A stretch of 64,000 bases of DNA from Micromonospora nigra. GTDB lineage: Bacteria; Actinomycetota; Actinomycetes; Mycobacteriales; Micromonosporaceae. Each line of letters starts with the position of its first letter. Position 1 is the stretch's first letter. The position numbers and the translations under genes are program-made. A model generated the notes under the pieces. That model was not told where the DNA came from, searched no databases, and saw nothing but the letters and a program-made list of their open reading frames with translations. The stretch is from positions 1,597,501 to 1,661,500 of the forward strand of contig NZ_FMHT01000003.1 in the NCBI RefSeq assembly GCF_900091585.1. The letters are read 5' to 3'. Below, piece after piece: positions 3,942-47,447 of this stretch.

Positions 3942-4583
3942 TCAGCTCAGGGTCCCGGCGCCTTCCGGAACCTGGGCGGCTCCGGTGATCACCTTGTCGA
4001 TGAAGCCGTAGTCCATGGCCTCCTGGGCGGTGAACCAGCGGTCGCGGTCCGAGTCCGCCTCGATCTGGGCCTGGTCCTGCCCGGTGTGGAAGGCCACCCG
4101 CTCCTGGAACATCCGCTTGGTGTAGAGCATCTGCTCCGCCTGGATGGCGATGTCGGAGGCGGTGCCGCCCATGCCGCCGGACGGCTGGTGCATCATGATC
4201 CGCGCATGCGGCAGGGCGTAGCGCTTGCCCTTGGTGCCGGCGCAGAGCAGCAGCTGGCCCATCGAGGCGGCCATGCCCATCGCCACCGTGGAGACGTCGT
4301 TGTCGATGTACTGCATGGTGTCGTAGATCGCCATACCGGAGTAGACCGAACCACCCGGCGAGTTGATCCAGAGGAAGATGTCGCGGTCCGGGTCCTCCGC
4401 GGCGAGTAGCAACAGCTGCGCGCAGATGCGGTTGGCAACCTGGTCGTTCACCTCGCTGCCCAGGAAGATGATGCGTTCCTTGAGCAACCGGTTGTAGACC
4501 GAGTCGTCGAGGTTGCCAATGGTGTCGCCACCGCGGGCGTCGATCGCCCGGAGCGGCTTCGCTGGGATGTGCATGTCGGTCAT
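3942..4583 (-). CDS. clpP1: ATP-dependent Clp protease proteolytic subunit 1
   Basis: A 213-aa ClpP paralogue. Nucleophile Ser107 is in [11 protein letters not shown], His132 in MMHQPSGG, and the Asp in the DSDRD segment near residue 178. It forms the second heptamer of the ClpP1P2 protease with the gene directly downstream. The start at 4583 gives the expected length. A ClgR-like box lies 78-91 bp upstream and a plausible -10 (TAGTGT) at 4617-4622, consistent with ClgR-activated transcription known for this operon in streptomycetes and mycobacteria. Confidence 0.96.
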
Positions 4584-4616
4584 GGCAGCCCTTCGCTCTC
4601 CGTACCGTCGTGTCCG

Positions 4617-4674
4617 ACACTAACCGCTCACCCGGGCGGCATAGCCCCGGTCGGGGCGCTGTTCGCTCTCAGCG
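4617..4674 (-). promoter_or_regulatory. Candidate clpP1P2 promoter with ClgR-type operator
   Basis: GTTCGC-N5-GCG is present at 4661-4674 (read on the + strand), matching the operator described for the actinobacterial Clp regulator ClgR. On the - strand a TAGTGT hexamer at 4622-4617 could be a -10 element, placing the box upstream of the promoter core, as expected for an activator. The -35 region is not recognisable. Promoter assignment is inference. Confidence 0.5.
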
Positions 4675-4707
4675 CAGCCCCGTCAGGCGTACCCGGAAAA
4701 GGGAGCG

Positions 4708-4741
4708 GGCCACCCCTCGCCGCAGGCGGCGAGGGGTGGCC
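4708..4741 (-). terminator. Intrinsic terminator of tig
   Basis: A 15-bp perfect stem (4708-4722 with 4727-4741) and 4-nt loop, followed leftward by CGCTCCCTTTTCC, begins 10 nt downstream of the tig stop codon. This is the clearest rho-independent terminator in the chromosomal part of the window. Confidence 0.85.
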
Positions 4742-4751
4742 TCACCCACGA

Positions 4752-6104
4752 TCAGTGCTCGTGGTCGTGGTCGTGCGCCTGCTCGCCCTCGGCACGCAGG
4801 GCGTCCAGGGTGACCTCGTTGCCAGCCGAATCCTTGATCTTGACGCGCTCCATGATCGAGGCCAGCGCCTTGCCCCGCCGCACGTCGCCGAACACGGCCC
4901 CGGCCGCGCCGGAGCGCACCAACTGGTCGTAGTACTGCTGCGGAGCCATGCCGGCGCGCTGCGCCCGGTGGACGATCTCGTGCCCGAACTCGTCGTCGGA
5001 AACCTGCACGTCCTCGGCGTCGGCGACGGTGTCCAGCAGGAGCTGGATCTTCACACCCTGGGTCGCCGCCTCGGTCAGCTCGGCGTCGATCTGCTCCTCG
5101 GTCTTCTCCTCGGCGGAGAGGTAGTCCTCCAGGGAGGCGCCGATGCGCTCCAACTGGTCGACCATCGCCTGCTTGCGGTTCTGGACCTCGTCCCGGACGA
5201 CCCCCTCCGGCGCGGGCACGTCGGCGGCGGCGACCAGCTGCTCCAGGGCCTTGTCCCGGGCGGCGTAGACCTGCTCCACCCGCTTGCCCCGGGCGACCCG
5301 CTCGCGCAGGTCGGAGCGGAGTTCCTCGATCGTGTCGAACTCGCTGGCCAGCTGGGCGAACTCGTCGTTCAGCTCGGGCAGCTCCTTCTCCTTGACGGTG
5401 CGCACGGTCACCGCCACCTCCGCGTCCCGACCGGCGAAGTCACCGCCGACGAGCTGGGTGGTGAACGTGGTGTCCTCGCCGGCGGAGAGGCCGACGACCG
5501 CCTCGTCCAGGCCCGGCAGGAGCTGCTTGCTGCCCACCTCGTGGGAGATGTTGGTGGCCGAGCCACCCGGCACGTCCACGCCGTCGACGGTCGCGTTCAG
5601 GTCGACCTGCACGTAGTCGCCCTCGGCGGCGGCCCGCTCGACGGTCTTGAGGGTGGCGAACCGCTCGCGCAGGTTCTTGACCTGCTCGTCGATCTCGCTG
5701 TCGTCGATCTGCAGCTCGTCGACCGTCACCTCGACGCCGTCCAGGTCCGGAAGGGTGATCTCGGGACGGACGTCGACCTCGGCGGTGAAGTTGAGGGAGT
5801 CACCGTCGTTGAACTCGGTGATCTCGACCTCGGGACGGCCGAGGGTCTTCAGGTCGTGCTCGCGCACGGCGGCGACGATGTTCTGCGGGATGGCCTCCTG
5901 CACCGCCTCGTTGAGGACGGTGCCCCGGCCCACCCGCTGGTCGATGATCGCGGCCGGCACCTTGCCCCGCCGGAAGCCGGGAACCTGGACCTGCTGGCCG
6001 ATCTCCCGGTACGCCTTCTTGAGGCTCGGCTCGAGCTCGACGAACGGCACCTCGATGGCGAGCCGCACGCGCGTCGGGCTCAGAGTCTCGACGGTGCTCT
6101 TCAC
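4752..6104 (-). CDS. tig: Trigger factor, ribosome-associated chaperone / prolyl isomerase
   Basis: A 450-aa protein with the three trigger-factor domains: an N-terminal ribosome-binding domain with the signature PGFRRGKVP near residues 43-51, a central FKBP-type PPIase domain (about 155-245) and a helical C-terminal chaperone domain ending in an acidic/His-rich tail (HDHDHEH). It binds nascent chains at the ribosome exit tunnel. The GTG start at 6104 is preceded by AAGGAG with 7-nt spacing. The position directly upstream of clpP1-clpP2 is the conserved actinobacterial order; a terminator separates them. Confidence 0.96.
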   Translation of the reverse strand: MKSTVETLSPTRVRLAIEVPFVELEPSLKKAYREIGQQVQVPGFRRGKVPAAIIDQRVGRGTVLNEAVQEAIPQNIVAAVREHDLKTLGRPEVEITEFNDGDSLNFTAEVDVRPEITLPDLDGVEVTVDELQIDDSEIDEQVKNLRERFATLKTVERAAAEGDYVQVDLNATVDGVDVPGGSATNISHEVGSKQLLPGLDEAVVGLSAGEDTTFTTQLVGGDFAGRDAEVAVTVRTVKEKELPELNDEFAQLASEFDTIEELRSDLRERVARGKRVEQVYAARDKALEQLVAAADVPAPEGVVRDEVQNRKQAMVDQLERIGASLEDYLSAEEKTEEQIDAELTEAATQGVKIQLLLDTVADAEDVQVSDDEFGHEIVHRAQRAGMAPQQYYDQLVRSGAAGAVFGDVRRGKALASIMERVKIKDSAGNEVTLDALRAEGEQAHDHDHEH

Positions 6105-35844: not shown

Positions 35845-37077
35845 ATGCCGCTCCCCCGCACCCGGCGCACCCTCGCCGTGGCGCTCACCGCCACCGTCGT
35901 GGGCACGCTGGCCGCCGGCCCCGCCACCGCCGCGCCGCCCACCGGGGCGATCCGGTACGCCGATGCCCCGACCGCCGTAGCCGGAAGCTACCTGGTGGTG
36001 CTCCGCGACGCCGGTGACACCGCGACCGCCGGCAGCCGCGCCACCACCGGCCGGGCCACCGTCGAGGCGACCGCGCACCGGCTCGCCGCCCGCCACGCCG
36101 GCAGTGTGACGATGGTCTTCGGGGCGTCCCTGCCCGGCTTCGAGGCGCGGCTGAGCGCGTCCGCCGCCCGTCGTCTCGCCGCCGACCCCGCCGTGGCATA
36201 CGTCGAGCAGAACCGCACCGTCAGCCTCGCCCCGCCGGGCGTGCAGCTGAACCCGCCGTCCTGGGGGCTGGACCGCATCGACCAGCGTGCCCTGCCGCTC
36301 GACGGCCGGTACGCGTACCCGAACACGGCCCCGAACGTGCACGCGTACGTGATCGACACGGGCGTGCGGAGCACCCACGGTGACTTCGGCGGCCGGGTCG
36401 GCGGCGGGATCGACCTGGTCGACGGCGGCCCGGCGGACGACTGCAACGGGCACGGCACCCATGTGGCCGGCACCATCGGCGGCAAGCTGCACGGGGTGGC
36501 CAAGGAGGTGCGGATCCGCCCGGTGCGGGTGTTGAACTGCTCGGGCAGCGGCACGTACGCGCAGGTGATCGCCGGGGTGGACTGGGTGACCGCGAACCGG
36601 GTCCGGCCGGCGGTGGCGCTGCTGGCCCTCGGCGGCGGCGCGAGCACCGCGCTGGACACGGCGGTGAAGAACTCGATCAACTCGGGGGTCACCTACGCGG
36701 TCACCGCCGGCAGCTCGAACGCCAACGCCTGCAACTACTCGCCCGCCCGGGTACCGGCCGCGCTGACCGTGGCCGGCACCACCCGCACCGACGGCCGCTC
36801 GCCGAGCGGCAACTACGGCCCCTGCCTGGACCTGTACGCGCCGGGCGCCGGCATCACCTCCACCTGGCACACCGGTGACGCCGCCGTGGCGACCATCAGC
36901 GGCGGCTCGATGGCGGCCGCGCACGTCGCCGGATGCGCCGCGCTGGCGCTGTCGGCGAACCCGACCTGGACGCCCGCCCAGGTCGGCGCCTACCTGACCG
37001 CCCGGGCCACCGTCGGGGTGGTGGTCGGCGGCTCGACCGGCGGCACCGCGAACCGCCTGCTCTACTGCGGCCCCTGA
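35845..37077 (+). CDS. Secreted S8 (subtilisin/proteinase K-like) serine protease, atypical active site
   Basis: 410 aa. A Sec signal peptide ([25 protein letters not shown]) precedes an inhibitor-I9-like propeptide (about 45-125) and a subtilase domain. The triad is Asp171 (VIDTG), His203 (NGHGTHVAG) and Ser355 ([13 protein letters not shown]). Family positions are altered: the oxyanion-hole Asn of AAGN is Ser290 (TAGSSN), GTSMA(A/T)PH is GGSMAAAH, and NMSLGG is LLALGG. Four mature-domain cysteines could form disulfides. The enzyme may be slow or specialised. It is convergent with the RiPP exporter. Whether it processes the peptide is unknown. Confidence 0.85.
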
Positions 37078-37263: not shown

Positions 37264-39078
37264 TCAGGCCGGCTGCGGGTCCTGGTAGCCGGCGGCCTGG
37301 AGGCCGAACAGCCGGGCGTACGCGCCACCCGCGGCGAGCAGCTCGTCGTGGGTGCCGCGCTCGGTGACCACCCCGTCGGCGAGCACCACGATCTGGTCGG
37401 CGTCCCGCACGGTGTTCATCCGGTGGGAGATCAGCAGGCTGGTCCGACCGGCGCGGTGCTCGGCCAACCGTCGGCCGATCTCGTGCTCGGCCTCGGCGTC
37501 GAGGCCGGCGCTGGGCTCGTCGAGCACGAGCAGGTCGCAGCCGTCGCGCATGAGGGCCCGGGCCAGCGCCACCCGCTGCCACTGGCCGCCGGAGAGCACC
37601 ACCCCGGAGGCCGGGTCGTCGCGGTCGGCAGCGTTCATGTAGACCCGGGTGAGCAACGTGTCGTAGCCGCGCGGCAGCGCGGCCAGTACCTCGTCGACGC
37701 CGGCCAGGCGGGCAGCGGCCCCGATGCGGTCGAGGTCGTCGAGGGCGGAGACGTCGCCGACACCGATGTTGTCGGCGGCACTGAGGTCGTACGACATGAA
37801 GTCCTGGAACACGACGCCGATGCGTCGGCGCAGCTCGGCCGGCGGCAGGTCCCGCAGGTCGACGCCGTCCCAGCGGATGCTGCCCCGGTCCGGGTCGTAG
37901 AACCTGCACAGAAGCTTCACCAGAGAACTCTTGCCGGCACCGTTCAGCCCGACGAGCGCGAGCGACGTGCCGGCGGGGATGGTCAGGTTCACGCCGCGCA
38001 ACACCCAGGGCAGCTCGTCGTCGTAGCGGAACCAGACGTCGTCGAACTCGACGCCCTGCCGCAGCGGTGGCGCCGACGGCAGCTGCCCCGCGCGGGGCGG
38101 CAGGTCCGGCGGTGCCTCGACGACGAACCGGTAGTGCCCGAACACGAGCATCGCCTCGTGCAGCCGCCCGGCGTTGACGAAGACCGTGCTCATGCCGCCC
38201 TGCACGCCCGCGACGGCGGCGACGAACACCGTGACGTCGCCGACGGTCAGCGCCCCGGAACGGGCGGCCCCCACGGCCCAGACCAGACCCAGGCCGGCCA
38301 CGACGGCGCCGAGCAGCCCCTGGAGGGTGGCGACGAGCAGTTCCCGCCGGTCCATCCGCCGCTGACCGGCGTGGAGGGAGCGCAGCTCGGTGAGCATCCG
38401 GGTGCCGAACAGCCCGCCCAGGCCGTAGAGGCGTACCTCCTTGGCGGCGGTGACGCTGGTCATGAGCTGGGCGTAGAAGAACTCCCGCCGCGCCGCGTGC
38501 CCCTGCTCCCAGAGCAGTCCGGCACGTTGCCGGGACAGGCGCAGCTCGGCGCGCAGGGTGGGTACGGCGGCGACCGCGACGACCAGCAGCATCCACGGGT
38601 TGATCGTGGCCAGCGTGGTGAGGAACGCGAGCATGGTGATCAGCCCCTGGGCGGCACCCAGCGAGCTGCTGAGCACCTCGGGCGGGCCGGTGGGGCCGGT
38701 CTCCGCGGCGAGGCTGAGCCGGTCGTGGAAGGCCGGGTCCTCGAAGCGGCGCAGCCCGGCCATCCGGGCCACGGCCGCGTAGAGGTGCTGACGTGCGGTC
38801 AGCCCGACGCGGCGTTGCAGCTCGGCGTCGGCGTACCGACCCAGCTCGGGCAGCAGCACCGTCGCCACCCCGGCGGCGGCCAGCAGCAGCACCGGGCCGG
38901 TCAACGGCTGCCCCCCGCCGGCCAGCCGGTCGAGGACGACCTTCATCAGCCAGGCTGCCGCCACCGGGACCGCGCCGGTGGCCACGGTGAGCAGGATCCG
39001 CACGACGAGCCAGCCGGCGGCGGCGTCCCGGGCGATCCGGGTCGCGGCGAGCAGGGAGCCCCACGCCGAGGCGGTCAC
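37264..39078 (-). CDS. ABC transporter, fused membrane and ATPase domains, RiPP exporter
   Basis: 604 aa from GTG 39078, overlapping the preceding stop (GTGA). The N-terminal six-helix exporter domain (about 1-320) is followed by an ATPase with Walker A GLNGAGKSS, signature LSGGQWQRVALARAL, Walker B LLVLDEPSAGLD and His switch SHRM. There is no C39 peptidase domain, so leader removal must be done by another enzyme. It is the last gene of the four-gene unit with the ATP-grasp maturase and probably exports the modified peptide. Confidence 0.88.
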   Translation of the reverse strand: MTASAWGSLLAATRIARDAAAGWLVVRILLTVATGAVPVAAAWLMKVVLDRLAGGGQPLTGPVLLLAAAGVATVLLPELGRYADAELQRRVGLTARQHLYAAVARMAGLRRFEDPAFHDRLSLAAETGPTGPPEVLSSSLGAAQGLITMLAFLTTLATINPWMLLVVAVAAVPTLRAELRLSRQRAGLLWEQGHAARREFFYAQLMTSVTAAKEVRLYGLGGLFGTRMLTELRSLHAGQRRMDRRELLVATLQGLLGAVVAGLGLVWAVGAARSGALTVGDVTVFVAAVAGVQGGMSTVFVNAGRLHEAMLVFGHYRFVVEAPPDLPPRAGQLPSAPPLRQGVEFDDVWFRYDDELPWVLRGVNLTIPAGTSLALVGLNGAGKSSLVKLLCRFYDPDRGSIRWDGVDLRDLPPAELRRRIGVVFQDFMSYDLSAADNIGVGDVSALDDLDRIGAAARLAGVDEVLAALPRGYDTLLTRVYMNAADRDDPASGVVLSGGQWQRVALARALMRDGCDLLVLDEPSAGLDAEAEHEIGRRLAEHRAGRTSLLISHRMNTVRDADQIVVLADGVVTERGTHDELLAAGGAYARLFGLQAAGYQDPQPA

Positions 39079-40100
39079 GACGCGGTGGTCTCGGGAACCC
39101 GGTCGAGGACGAAGTGGCTGGCGACCATCGTGTCGTCGGCGAGCAGCCCGAAGGCGGGGTAGCCGTCGACGCCGAAGGCCCGGGAGACCGGCCCGCGTTC
39201 GGGTTCGACGACCACCCGGGCCACCGGGGTGAGCTGGTCGCTGAGCCGGCCGGCGGCCTCGCCCGCGCCGAGCACCACGGCGAGCACGCCCTCCCGGCCC
39301 TCGGGTCGGGCCTCGGCCCGGGCGACGAAGCCGGGCAGGCTCTCGGCGCAGGCCGGGCAGCTCGGGGAGACGAAGGCCACGAGTGTCTCGCCCCGCAGGT
39401 CGGCCCGGCTGACCGGGGTGCCGTCGACGGTGGTGGCGGTGAAGTCGCCGACCGTCGCGCCGGCCGCGAGCATGATCGGCGCCGGGTTGGCGACCCCCTC
39501 GATGCTGACCTTCAGCAGCGTGGACTGCTGTCGCAGCTGCCGCAGCACCAGGGCGAGCACCACCGTGTTGATCAGGCAGACCACGGTGAGCAGCGTCAGC
39601 ACCAGGGGAAGGTGGGACATCTCGCCTCCCGACCAGCCGGGCGGCCCGCCGGTGCCCGTCAGGGGCACCGGACGCGCTCCGCCGAGTGTGAGGACCGTAC
39701 CGCCGCCGGCCACCGCCGTCAGCCCCAGGTTGCGGGCCAGCTGGACGGGGCCGGGCGGGGCGTCGGTGGCGCCGAAGCAGCGGCACGGCTCGCGTACGCC
39801 CCGGCGGATCATCACCGCGACCGCCGCCGTGAACGCGGCCAGCAGGGCGGCGGCCAGGGCGTACCCGGTCGGGGCGAGCGCCGGGACGACCAGCGCCGCC
39901 ATCAGCGTGACGACGGTGACCACCTCGGCCGCGACCACCCCGACGGCGAGTGGCCGGGCCAGCCCCGCCGGCACACCGAGGGTGCGGGGCAGCGACGCGC
40001 GGAAGGCCGCGTGAGCGGCCCGGCGCAGCTTGCCCGCCGCCGACCAGCCGAGGGTGACCGCCAGGACGAGCTGACCGGCGAGCAGCAACGCTCCCGTCAT
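39075..40100 (-). CDS. MauE/DoxX-like membrane domain fused to TlpA-like thioredoxin-fold domain
   Basis: 341 aa. An N-terminal MauE-like integral membrane part (about 1-145; four helices with an RxPCRCFG motif), then a membrane anchor (LPLVLTLLTVVCLINTVVLALVL). A thioredoxin/AhpC-TSA-like domain (about 215-335) carries FVSPSCPACAESLPGF. MauE family proteins handle thiol-disulfide exchange across the membrane. Here the two redox halves are in one protein, between the ATP-grasp gene and the exporter, fitting oxidation or reduction of peptide cysteines. Confidence 0.8.
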   Translation of the reverse strand: MTGALLLAGQLVLAVTLGWSAAGKLRRAAHAAFRASLPRTLGVPAGLARPLAVGVVAAEVVTVVTLMAALVVPALAPTGYALAAALLAAFTAAVAVMIRRGVREPCRCFGATDAPPGPVQLARNLGLTAVAGGGTVLTLGGARPVPLTGTGGPPGWSGGEMSHLPLVLTLLTVVCLINTVVLALVLRQLRQQSTLLKVSIEGVANPAPIMLAAGATVGDFTATTVDGTPVSRADLRGETLVAFVSPSCPACAESLPGFVARAEARPEGREGVLAVVLGAGEAAGRLSDQLTPVARVVVEPERGPVSRAFGVDGYPAFGLLADDTMVASHFVLDRVPETTAS

Positions 40101-40101
40101 G

Positions 40102-41118
40102 TCAGTAGCCGACCTGGGTGACCTCGCCCCGCCGGTACGGGCCGCCGGCCAGCAGCAGGTTCGCGACGGTGTCGCCCAGCGGCAGCCCCAGGTCGTGCTG
40201 CATCCACATGAACTGGCCGCCGGGGTTGACCTCCAGGAAGACGTGCTCGCCGTCGGGGGTGACGATGAAGTCGATCGCGGCGTACACGATGTCGAGGCGC
40301 TCGAGCATCCGCTGGACCTTCGCCACCACGTCGTCTGGCAGCGGCTTGTACGGCCCGTAGGGCAGGTGGTTCTCGCCGCGCCAGTCGACGGCGGTGGTGG
40401 GCATGGCCTGCGAGTCGATGACCACCGGGAACCAGGTGTCGCCGATGACGGTCAGCCGCACCTCGTACGCCTTGTCGACGTACTCCTGGAACATGCAGAC
40501 GGTGTGCCGGACCCGGTCGGCGTGCGTCAGGATCTCGTCGCCGACCTTGGTGGTGTAGAGCCCGCTGGGGAAGGCACCCGGGTAGTGGATCACCCCGCCG
40601 GTGAGCGCCTTGTAGACGATCGGCCGGTCGGCGGACTCCACGAGAGCCCGCACCTCGGCCGGGTCGTTGGTGAGCAGGGTGCGCGGCACCCGCATGCCGA
40701 ACTGCTTGGCGAGCTGGAGCTGGTAGGGCTTCAGCTCGGCGACGGCGTCGACGTCGGGCCGGTTGACCCAGAGGCAGTCGGTGGCGCGCAGGATGCCCCC
40801 GATACCGTGCAGCGCCTCGTTGCGGGCGAACTGCTGCTCGGCCTCGCTCATCTGCGCGTCGAAGCGGAACGCGGTGGGACGGCGGTACCACACCCCGGAG
40901 AGCCGACCGAGGTCGATCTCCCGCCCGCGGTGCAGCAGCCGCCGTCGTTCGCCATCGAAGTCCGAGGTGGTGAACGTCAGCGTCTGCGGGAAGCAGCTCA
41001 GGTCGACGCGTACGACGTTGGCGCCTCTCGCGGTGAGACTCCGTACGACGGGATCGACCGTGGGGTCGAAGTCCTGGGTGAGGATCAGGATCCCGGGATC
41101 CGATGGCGACGTGGTCAC
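40102..41118 (-). CDS. tgmB: ATP-grasp ribosomal peptide maturase (graspetide synthetase, TgmB-like)
   Basis: 338 aa. N-terminal pre-ATP-grasp domain, then an ATP-grasp fold with substrate/ATP elements RPIVYKALTGG, FQEYVDKAYEVRLTVIG and the metal site DFIVTPDGEHVFLEVNPGGQF. The GGQF/W segment and size match the actinobacterial SAV_5884/TgmB family, relatives of the microviridin ligases MdnB/C that form ester or amide macrocycles between side chains of a precursor peptide. It starts 9 bp after the precursor stop. Exact chemistry is unknown. Confidence 0.85.
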   Translation of the reverse strand: MTTSPSDPGILILTQDFDPTVDPVVRSLTARGANVVRVDLSCFPQTLTFTTSDFDGERRRLLHRGREIDLGRLSGVWYRRPTAFRFDAQMSEAEQQFARNEALHGIGGILRATDCLWVNRPDVDAVAELKPYQLQLAKQFGMRVPRTLLTNDPAEVRALVESADRPIVYKALTGGVIHYPGAFPSGLYTTKVGDEILTHADRVRHTVCMFQEYVDKAYEVRLTVIGDTWFPVVIDSQAMPTTAVDWRGENHLPYGPYKPLPDDVVAKVQRMLERLDIVYAAIDFIVTPDGEHVFLEVNPGGQFMWMQHDLGLPLGDTVANLLLAGGPYRRGEVTQVGY

Positions 41119-41127
41119 AGGGTGTCC

Positions 41128-41418
41128 CTAGGCGCAGACGTCGTCGGTCACGCAGTCACCGCAGTTCGCCCCTGAGGTCCGGGTCTTGGTGTAGATGCCG
41201 GCGGTGATGCCGCCGTCGGGGGTGACCCACACCTGCTGGTCGGCGTCGTAGTGGCCCAGCTCCGCCTCGGCCTCCTCCGGCATGCCCGGGTCCCAGTTGG
41301 CGAACAGGTAGCCGAAGGGCTGCTTCTCGTGGTCGGCCGGCAGTGGCTGGCTGAAGTCGTGTCCGCTGGTCATGGACAGGGACGTCCGCAGGGGGTTGCG
41401 GGTGAGCGTGGTCGTCAT
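41128..41418 (-). CDS. tgmA: Graspetide-type precursor peptide (TgmA-like)
   Basis: 96 aa with AAGGAG 8 nt upstream. The N-terminus resembles the TgmA family: PLPADHEKQPFGYLFANW, then PGMPEEAEAELGHYDADQQVWV. The C-terminal 25-30 residues (from about 68) are rich in Thr, Ser and Asp and hold three cysteines: GANCGDCVTDDVCA. Side chains of Thr/Ser with Asp are the expected donors and acceptors for ATP-grasp macrocyclisation; cysteines are unusual in graspetide cores. The ATG overlaps the stop of the gene upstream (ATGA). Confidence 0.8.
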   Translation of the reverse strand: MTTTLTRNPLRTSLSMTSGHDFSQPLPADHEKQPFGYLFANWDPGMPEEAEAELGHYDADQQVWVTPDGGITAGIYTKTRTSGANCGDCVTDDVCA

Positions 41419-41876
41419 TCCTGGTCTCCTTCGTTTCCGGCCGGCGGGGTGCCGGCCGACGACAGCGGCTCGGTGAGCCCGATGATTCCGGGCACGTCGG
41501 CGGAGAACGACCAGACCAGGTTGTCCTCGTCGTAGTGCCCGGCGTCGAGAGTGAGATCGGATTCCAGCTCGTCGTGGTCGGAGCGGTCGTACAGATAGCC
41601 CAGCGGCGCGAAGGGGTGCACGCGGCGCTGTTCCCGCAGGTCGACGTCGACCGCCCGGACGACGAGACGCGTCCCGTCGAGTTCCGGACGGTCCAGTCGC
41701 AGGACGGTGGCGGGGATGGTCGCCCGCCCCGGGGCCTCACCGTCCTCAGCTGGCCCCTCGTCGTCCACCCCCACATACTCATTGATTGATCTGAGTTTGT
41801 GAAGGTCTTCGGAACTGAAACTTCCACGCTTTCCGAAAGGGGTCGTCACCAGTTCGGCACGGAATCGCCACCACAT
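41415..41876 (-). CDS. Precursor-related protein with TgmA-like C-terminal motif
   Basis: About 153 aa from ATG 41876 (GTG 41849 is an alternative; the true start is uncertain). The C-terminal part has HPFAPLGYLYDRSD...LESDLTLDAGHYDEDNLVWSF, which aligns with the precursor's PFGYLFANWD...AEAELGHYDADQQVW. The N-terminal half has a different, beta-rich composition. Unlike the 96-aa precursor its C-terminus has no cysteines. It could be a second precursor, a leader-like adaptor or a decoy; it is translationally coupled to the precursor gene. A lower-GC region (41770-41830) lies within its 5' part. Confidence 0.65.
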   Translation of the reverse strand: MWWRFRAELVTTPFGKRGSFSSEDLHKLRSINEYVGVDDEGPAEDGEAPGRATIPATVLRLDRPELDGTRLVVRAVDVDLREQRRVHPFAPLGYLYDRSDHDELESDLTLDAGHYDEDNLVWSFSADVPGIIGLTEPLSSAGTPPAGNEGDQE

Positions 41877-46823: not shown

Positions 46824-47447
46824 CTAGTCGAAGATGGGTTCCAGATCCCGACTGCGCTTCAGCTCGAAGAACCCCGGGGTGCCGGCGACCAGCAGCACCC
46901 CGTCCCACAGCCGCCCGGCGGCTTCCCCCTTCGGCGCCGGCGTGACCACCGGGCCGAAGAAGGCGACCTGCCGCCCGTCCGGGCCGGGCGCGTGGATGAC
47001 CGGGGTGCCCACGTCCGTGCCGACGGGCTGCATGCCGGCGGAGTGGCTGGCCCGCAGCGCCTCGTCGTACGTCGCGTCGTCGGCCGCTGCGGCCAGCGCC
47101 GGATCGAGCCCCGCTTCGGTCAGCGCGGCGGTGTACAACTCCGGGCCCACCTGCTCCTTGCCGAGGTGGATCCGGGTGCCGAGGGTGGTGTAGAGGCGGC
47201 GTACCGCGTCCGCACCGTGCCGTTGCCGCACCGCCACGCAGACCCGCACCGGGCCCCACCCCGTCCGCATCAGCTCCTGGTAGTGCTCCGGCAGGTCCCG
47301 CCCCTCGTTGAGCACCGAGAGGCTCATCACGTGGAACCGGACCTCCAGGTCACGGACCTGCTCCACCTCCAGCAGCCAGCGCGAGGTGATCCACGCCCAC
47401 GGGCAGATCGGGTCGAACCACATGTCCACGACGGTGCGCTCACTCAC
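46824..47447 (-). CDS. DsbA-fold, mycothiol-dependent nitroreductase-like protein (Rv2466c family)
   Basis: 207 aa with a thioredoxin/DsbA fold. The active-site motif near residue 15 is DPICPWAWITSRW, CPWA instead of the CPWC of Rv2466c; only the first, resolving-type Cys is kept. FHVMSLSVLNE, cis-Pro loop GTPVIH and a helical insertion match the family, which uses mycothiol. Divergent from pepN. The missing second Cys suggests monothiol chemistry. Confidence 0.82.
   Translation of the reverse strand: MSERTVVDMWFDPICPWAWITSRWLLEVEQVRDLEVRFHVMSLSVLNEGRDLPEHYQELMRTGWGPVRVCVAVRQRHGADAVRRLYTTLGTRIHLGKEQVGPELYTAALTEAGLDPALAAAADDATYDEALRASHSAGMQPVGTDVGTPVIHAPGPDGRQVAFFGPVVTPAPKGEAAGRLWDGVLLVAGTPGFFELKRSRDLEPIFD

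What the first reader, a model, noticed from the sequence alone, without database searches (positions are those of the whole stretch)
39075..41876. Graspetide-type RiPP cluster with a cysteine-containing core
ATP-grasp maturase, TgmA-like precursor, redox membrane protein and ABC exporter in one operon. The precursor C-terminus (GANCGDCVTDDVCA) combines Thr/Asp ring-formers with three Cys, which is unusual for side-chain ester or amide macrocycles. No methyltransferase is present, unlike many TgmB clusters.
Basis: partly seen in the sequence, partly recalled or inferred. Interest (0 to 1): 0.75.

Follow-up and report, generated by a model that had tools for sequence, protein, structure and literature searches.

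The report
Cysteine-bearing ring-peptide cluster with duplicated leader
This is a five-gene cluster that very probably makes a small peptide cross-linked through its side chains, and it belongs to an apparently uncharacterised actinobacterial family in which the peptides share an aspartate-aspartate-cysteine tail, most carry an extra cysteine pair matched by a dedicated sulphur-chemistry gene, and nearly every cluster keeps a second leader-like protein with no product part.

Summary
In detail: a tight minus-strand operon encodes a leader-like protein, a 96-aa precursor ending IYTKTRTSGANCGDCVTDDVCA, a graspetide-type ATP-grasp ligase, a MauE+thioredoxin-like membrane protein and an ABC exporter; no TIGR04188 methyltransferase lies in the window. 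Comparison with 30 further loci shows a discrete family. (1) All 78 precursor sequences examined (about 60 distinct cores) end in DDxCx. (2) Loop cysteines mostly come as a pair flanking the first Asp and track the redox gene: 16 of 16 loci with MauE+Trx have the pair; 12 of 14 without have no loop Cys; one exception has loop Cys but no MauE nearby. Few independent changes underlie this. Best reading: a stem-loop graspetide (Thr-Asp esters) additionally stapled by a disulfide made by MauE-Trx, with the coreless leader paralog as ligase partner. Disulfide and partner roles are inferred. A new variant of a known kind; the invariant penultimate Cys is unexplained.

The parts
41415..41768 (-). Coreless leader paralog (about 117 aa, probable GTG start; ORF open to an ATG at 41876): P-L-G-Y and AGHYD...W leader motifs, no core
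   Evidence: 39 database homologs, alignments A2/A6; profile match to the precursor leader, probability 96.4, E 1e-9 over 60 columns; start inferred from the 117-aa M. endolithica homolog P0025
41128..41418 (-). Precursor peptide, 96 aa; leader PxxY...GHYD...QxW, small-residue site before the core, core IYTKTRTSGANCGDCVTDDVCA
   Evidence: 24 homologs and 24 more; DDxCx in 78 of 78 sequences
41131..41196 (-). Predicted core (residues 75-96): Thr77/79/81, Asp88/92/93, loop Cys86/Cys89, invariant Cys95
   Evidence: alignment conservation; cleavage site inferred from the conserved AG/MG
40102..41118 (-). Graspetide-type ATP-grasp ligase, 338 aa
   Evidence: TIGR04187/PF21068; PDB relatives 7mgv, 5ig8, 5ig9, 7m4s
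39075..40100 (-). MauE membrane domain (PCRCFG) in one frame with a membrane-anchored thioredoxin-like domain (CPAC); two separate genes in several relatives
   Evidence: PF07291, weak AhpC-TSA/Redoxin; CxC and CxxC in 16 of 16 loci with the gene(s), window included (counted by eye)
37264..39078 (-). ABC exporter (permease + ATPase, 604 aa); no peptidase domain among the Pfam matches

Best explanation
A graspetide operon. The ATP-grasp ligase binds the leader (PxxY...GHYD...W) of the precursor and joins Thr77/79/81 to Asp88/92/93 by side-chain esters, giving a stem-loop peptide. The coreless paralog, which carries the same leader motifs, binds the ligase as a partner and is needed for its activity or stability. 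The ABC protein exports the product. The MauE-thioredoxin protein oxidises the two loop cysteines that flank Asp88 to a disulfide, stapling the loop. The leader is cut after the conserved AG/MG by a protease encoded elsewhere. Shown by sequence: gene content, leader paralogy, conservation patterns, co-occurrence. Inferred: every chemical step, the role of the coreless protein and the order of steps.
For: Ligase family and PDB relatives. TxTxT and DxxxDD conserved; Thr81 and Asp88 are mostly kept or lost together (both in 50, neither in 6, one only in 4 of 60 cores). Thr-Asp ester stem-loops with two to five cross-links are reported for graspimiditides (PMC13001092, passages). Loop Cys: among 40 cores with two loop Cys and Asp88, 38 have one on each side of the Asp. 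MauE+Trx loci: 16 of 16 with the pair; of 14 loci with a precursor and no MauE+Trx near the ligase, 12 have no loop Cys, one has 1 (L040), one has precursors with 2 and 3 (L035) (Fisher p 1.2e-7, not phylogeny-corrected). Genome G538 carries one locus of each kind (L077, L082), and so does G1260 (L074, L041). A DoxX-family plus CXXC-thioredoxin pair is proposed for disulfides in class I lasso peptides (PMC9266682, passages); MauE for Cys-rich RiPP candidates (PMC7794033, passages). Coreless paralog in 29 of 31 clade loci and no match to it in 21 distant ligase loci. Partner-dependent ligases exist (rosaritide MirC, PMC13097080, abstract, section 7 and passages), and a construct with two leaders is better modified in the ThfA system (PMC13003496, passages).
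Against: No chemistry was observed. The Cys-MauE association has only about 3 changes on the ligase tree, one independent pair on well supported branches, too few for a phylogenetic test. L035 has 3- and 4-Cys cores (terminal Cys counted) without MauE in the operon; its genome has a MauE-Trx pair elsewhere, but so does G1326, whose graspetide locus has no loop Cys. DoxX/Trx genes are described as dispensable for disulfides in lasso peptides. The third, invariant Cys is unexplained by this model. Some cores lack Asp88 or the full Thr triad (10 of 60). Structure models of coreless and precursor were low confidence (mean pLDDT 55.9 and 63.8) and add nothing.
Confidence: 0.6

Rival explanations
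1. The cysteines are metal ligands (zinc, copper or iron-sulphur): the core is a metal-binding peptide and the MauE-thioredoxin protein keeps the thiols reduced, instead of making a disulfide.
For: Three Cys is an odd number; some cores read CGC or CPCGCG. Zinc binding by Cys motifs is needed for aspartimidylation in imiditides (PMC13001092, passages).
Against: Loop Cys come mostly as exactly two (43 of 60 cores), and 10 of 60 cores have none and keep only the terminal Cys; MauE is discussed in PMC7794033 as a proposed disulfide factor.
Confidence: 0.2
2. The coreless protein is not a ligase partner but a second substrate, an immunity or export chaperone, or a decoy precursor.
For: It shares only the leader motifs and has its own conserved N-terminal region FLRLDRPEL...RE.RR; it has a well conserved Thr in GLTEP.
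Against: No conserved acceptor/donor tail follows the leader part; it is encoded upstream of precursor and ligase in 29 of 31 loci, one miss being a contig end and one a locus without an intact precursor.
Confidence: 0.3
3. The Cys-MauE-ABC association is only shared descent: a branch of loci happens to have MauE, one exporter type and loop Cys, with no functional link.
For: Only about 3 changes of state on the ligase tree, one independent pair on starred branches.
Against: Loop-Cys cores of Micromonosporaceae loci and of the Actinomadura-type loci have different Cys spacings (CGDC, CYAGSDRC), yet both have the gene; two genomes hold both kinds of locus (G538, G1260).
Confidence: 0.25

Closest known systems
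Graspimiditides (fuscimiditide ThfA/B/M, amycolimiditide; group 13 graspetides)
   Same: Mostly actinobacterial, ATP-grasp ligase, leader with a PFG-type motif (RPFG there, QPFG here), Thr-Asp ester stem-loop expected from the core
   Different: No isoaspartyl methyltransferase here; loop Cys pair, MauE-Trx, invariant DDxCx tail and coreless paralog here
Rosaritide (Micromonospora rosaria, group 21)
   Same: TIGR04187-type ligase in Micromonospora, three lactones, ligase needs a partner protein
   Different: Its partner MirC is a PpiC/SurA-like protein and its exporter a peptidase-containing one; here the partner candidate is a leader paralog, and no PpiC or peptidase domain was matched in the five operon genes
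Sviceucin-type class I lasso peptides (SviE DoxX, SviF thioredoxin)
   Same: DoxX-family membrane protein plus CXXC thioredoxin beside exporter genes and a disulfide-bearing peptide
   Different: Lasso macrolactam chemistry, not ATP-grasp esters
decRiPPter mauE candidate families (Streptomyces)
   Same: MauE homologs beside Cys-rich putative precursors, disulfide role proposed
   Different: At least 8 Cys per precursor there; the passages seen do not link them to ATP-grasp ligases

Membership tests
Graspetides | MvdD/MdnC-type ATP-grasp ligase | tested here: met
   PF21068 above cut-off, TIGR04187 E 3e-92, PDB relatives CdnC, AMdnB and others
Graspetides | Adjacent precursor with hydroxyl/amine acceptors and Asp/Glu donors in the C-terminal core | tested here: met
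   TxT-type motif in 59 of 60 cores, DD in 78 of 78 sequences
Graspetides | Side-chain lactone/lactam formed by the ligase | not testable with these tools
   needs mass spectrometry
TIGR04187 (GRASP_SAV_5884) ligase subfamily | score above curated cut-off 350 bits | tested here: not met
   309 bits
TIGR04186 TgmA-type precursor | match to the model | tested here: not met
   no match for the window's precursor; 11 of 59 relatives at E<=1, best 0.0011
Graspimiditides (group 13) | co-occurring isoaspartyl methyltransferase (TIGR04188) | tested here: not met
   none in the window; three weak genome matches elsewhere
Microviridins | PFFARFL leader motif | tested here: not met
   motif as given in PMC8939145; absent from the precursor sequence
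MauE/DoxX-thioredoxin disulfide machinery | MauE domain with Cys motif and thioredoxin-like CxxC | tested here: met
   PF07291; CxC and CxxC in 16 of 16 loci
MauE/DoxX-thioredoxin disulfide machinery | forms a disulfide in the cognate peptide | not testable with these tools
   co-occurrence only
Published graspetide groups 1-43 | membership of a numbered similarity-network group | tested here: inconclusive
   main text of PMC13097080 does not contain the words MauE, thioredoxin, disulfide or cysteine and section 7 names no such group; groups 25, 31, 34, 38, 42, 43 hold DUFs or proteins without an HMM match, so the clade could be one of them; supplements not readable

The most novel reading that the evidence does not exclude
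The clade is a mechanistically distinct graspetide group whose ligase works as a heteromeric complex with an obligate, core-free copy of the leader (a leader supplied in trans by its own gene), and whose invariant penultimate Cys takes part in a linkage not known from natural graspetides (for example a side-chain thioester, which ATP-grasp ligases are reported to form when a nucleophile is substituted, or a mixed ester-disulfide cage), the variable loop Cys pair being oxidised by the dedicated MauE-Trx protein.
Probability: 0.25. Interest if true: 0.85.

Novelty: new variant of a known kind. Interest (0 to 1): 0.6.

Why it matters
A natural graspetide combining esters and a disulfide would be a new scaffold type, and a gene-encoded leader in trans would make the question of how leaders activate ATP-grasp ligases directly testable with a native system instead of engineered fusions. 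The natural split between one-Cys and three-Cys members of one family is a ready-made comparison for what the redox gene does.

Tried and rejected
Structure prediction of the coreless protein and the precursor gave low-confidence models, so no fold search was run. The Cys-MauE association could not be tested on the ligase tree: one independent pair on starred branches, three on the best tree. Pfam and NCBIfam gave no family for the window's precursor or coreless protein (coreless against NCBIfam only as the 153-aa ORF). The MauE half had no PDB match better than E 0.28 and the thioredoxin half none up to 0.1. No consensus promoter or terminator was found. The S8 protease at 35845-37077 was considered as the leader protease and set aside: other strand, and no match to it appears among the listed matches of the loci (L001-L030 reach only about 1.5 kb from the ligase, L031-L041 mostly several kb). 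Class- and phylum-wide ligase searches at E 1e-85 found few members (2 of 394 and 1 of 396 genomes, own genome included); in the family of G538, 21 of 341 genomes matched, 19 of them with clade members, the other two (G1317, G1211) at about 310 bits, used as outgroup. In one search the core boundary was set by a pattern that trimmed unevenly, so at least one of the 60 'distinct' cores (P0074 and P0084) is counted twice; the 78 sequences include peptides seen both in a locus and in the protein database.
Full report
What is there. The stated region holds a minus-strand operon. Order of transcription: a leader-like protein (41768-41415, probable GTG start; open to an ATG at 41876), the 96-aa precursor (41418-41128, its ATG overlapping the upstream stop), the ATP-grasp ligase (41118-40102), a MauE domain in one frame with a thioredoxin-like domain (40100-39075) and an ABC exporter of 604 aa (39078-37264) that overlaps the previous stop. 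The ligase matches TIGR04187 at 309 bits (cut-off 350) and PF21068 above cut-off; its best PDB relatives by sequence are 7mgv (CdnC), 5ig8 and 5ig9 (deposited as ATP grasp ligases) and 7m4s (AMdnB). The exporter's Pfam matches include no peptidase domain. The three TIGR04188 matches in the whole genome are weak and outside the window. Coreless, precursor and ligase genes evolve under purifying selection (dN/dS 0.225, 0.176 and 0.237 against L031; 0.243, 0.431 and 0.151 against the closer L033).

The family. Of 300 genomes of the window's family, 80 have some ligase match; 8 (own included) have one at 73% identity or more, plus a 67% fragment in G075; the next best is 44%. Class and phylum samples add almost nothing (2 of 394 and 1 of 396 genomes at E 1e-85, own included), but 19 of 341 genomes of the family of G538 carry clade members (21 matched; two are a distant outgroup at about 310 bits). 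A scan of named genomes gave 11 loci, from Micromonospora (2), Catellatospora, Plantactinospora, Catelliglobosispora, Pseudonocardia, Actinomadura (3), Nonomuraea and an uncultured Thermomonosporaceae bacterium. After removal of duplicates, 31 clade loci with a full-length ligase, the window's included, were compared.

The upstream gene is a coreless copy of the leader. Profile comparison of its family (50 sequences) with the precursor family (59 sequences) aligns 60 columns with probability 96.4 and E 1e-9; the precursor model also finds it in many single loci at E 1e-3 to 1e-7. Shared are P-(L/F)-(G/A)-Y, G-H-Y-D and W at nearly the same spacing. After that the precursor goes on to the core, whereas the coreless protein ends in a stretch like FSGEVTGIxGLTEP and an unconserved tail. 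It is present in 29 of 31 loci; the misses are L078 (contig end) and L086 (no intact precursor either). In 21 distant ligase loci of the same family no match to the window's coreless protein or precursor was found within about 1.5 kb (tblastn E 1e-4). In published work the leader tetrapeptide RPFG recruits the fuscimiditide ligase ThfB, and a construct with two leaders is better modified (PMC13003496, passages); rosaritide's ligase needs a different partner protein (PMC13097080, abstract, section 7 and passages). A partner role for the coreless protein is therefore plausible, but it is inference.

The core. Of 78 precursor sequences (48 database proteins, 29 from loci, the window; some are the same peptide), 78 end in D-D-x-C-x, members with a single Cys included. 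Of about 60 distinct cores, loop Cys (before DD) number 0 in 10, 1 in 1, 2 in 43 and 3 in 6. Of 40 cores with two loop Cys and the first Asp, 38 have one Cys on each side of that Asp although the spacing differs widely (CGDC, CPGDC, CYAGSDRC, CYNTDSC). Thr81 and Asp88 are both present in 50, both absent in 6 and alone in 4, as expected of an optional third cross-link. Of the two outgroup loci, the precursor of L089 also ends in DDAC, with Cys as last residue, whereas the weak candidate of L090 ends in DDGY, without that Cys. The invariant Cys near the C-terminus is not explained by any model I can support. ATP-grasp ligases that make esters are reported to make thioesters when the nucleophile is substituted (PMC12291112, passages), so a thioester is chemically thinkable.

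Cysteines and the redox gene. All 16 loci with MauE and thioredoxin matches have the loop Cys pair. Of 14 loci with a precursor but no MauE/Trx match within 6 kb of the ligase, 12 have no loop Cys, L040 has one, and L035 (Catelliglobosispora koreensis) has two precursors with 2 and 3 loop Cys. The exporter follows the same split: 723-1302 bits to the window's exporter (itself included) in the 17 loci with two or more loop Cys, 259-304 bits in 12 others, none found near L041. MauE has CxCFG and the thioredoxin CxxC in 16 of 16 (by eye); they are one ORF in the Micromonospora and Catellatospora loci and separate ORFs in the other ten. G538 carries one locus of each kind, and so does G1260. Fisher's test gives 1.2e-7, but the ligase tree needs only 3 changes, and one independent pair is on supported branches, so shared descent is not excluded. 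C. koreensis has a MauE-Trx pair elsewhere in its genome, but so does G1326, whose own graspetide locus has no loop Cys, so this is weak help.

Mechanism proposed. The ligase, helped by the coreless leader paralog, makes Thr-Asp esters in the cytoplasm to give a stem-loop, as in graspimiditides, which have two to five such esters (PMC13001092, passages). The peptide is exported by the ABC protein and, in the loop-Cys branch, oxidised by MauE-Trx, by analogy with SviE/SviF of class I lasso peptides, where the genes are however described as dispensable (PMC9266682, passages), and with the disulfide role proposed for MauE (PMC7794033, passages). No gene of the operon is a recognisable leader peptidase.

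Is it known? Graspetides are. In what I could see (listings; of PMC8939145 the outline, sections 5 and 7, part 2 of section 6 and passages; of PMC13097080 the outline, section 7 and passages; passages of PMC13003496, PMC12291112 and PMC13001092) I found no graspetide with MauE/thioredoxin, no disulfide-stapled natural graspetide and no coreless leader paralog. The nearest notes: ThfA carries a Cys that was replaced to avoid disulfides; PMC8939145 notes conserved Cys in many new precursors (thioether proposed) and small LPL proteins as possible auxiliary factors of another ligase branch. The clade may still be one of the numbered groups, because supplements and the 2021 survey (not held) could not be read. 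I therefore file it as a new variant of a known kind.

Noticed in passing
L089 (G1317), about 4422-4874: Outgroup graspetide precursor, without a coreless or MauE match in the locus, also ends in TTDDAC with Cys as the very last residue, hinting that the DDxC tail predates the rest; the other outgroup candidate (L090) ends in DDGY.
   Followed up: partly
L086 (G1260:C151): Third clade locus of one genome: ligase and exporter present, but by eye only a truncated precursor-like start and no coreless match; looks degenerate.
   Followed up: partly
G538:C25:619642-620664; G1326:C1:1885153-1886216, 5323915-5324965, 5598320-5599404; G017:C43:199695-200682: Further neighbouring MauE and thioredoxin-like pairs elsewhere in these genomes; their neighbours were not examined and could be other peptide clusters.
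   Followed up: no
window 41415-41768: Coreless gene has lower GC3 (0.85; 0.72 in L031) than precursor and ligase (about 0.95).
   Followed up: no
P0082, P0083, P0085, P0086; P0074, P0075, P0084: Database cores with CPCGCG or CGC, lacking the first Asp (and in four the third Thr): a further core subtype whose loci were not seen.
   Followed up: no
window 35845-37077 (+): Subtilase (Peptidase_S8 with I9 propeptide) convergent with the operon; no match listed beside the relatives.
   Followed up: partly
window 46824-47447 (-): ORF that looks like a DsbA-family protein (by eye, from its N-terminus; not searched); outside the operon.
   Followed up: no
P0043: A coreless-protein homolog is named as from an Acidimicrobiales bacterium, so the family may reach beyond the genomes sampled here.
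   Followed up: no
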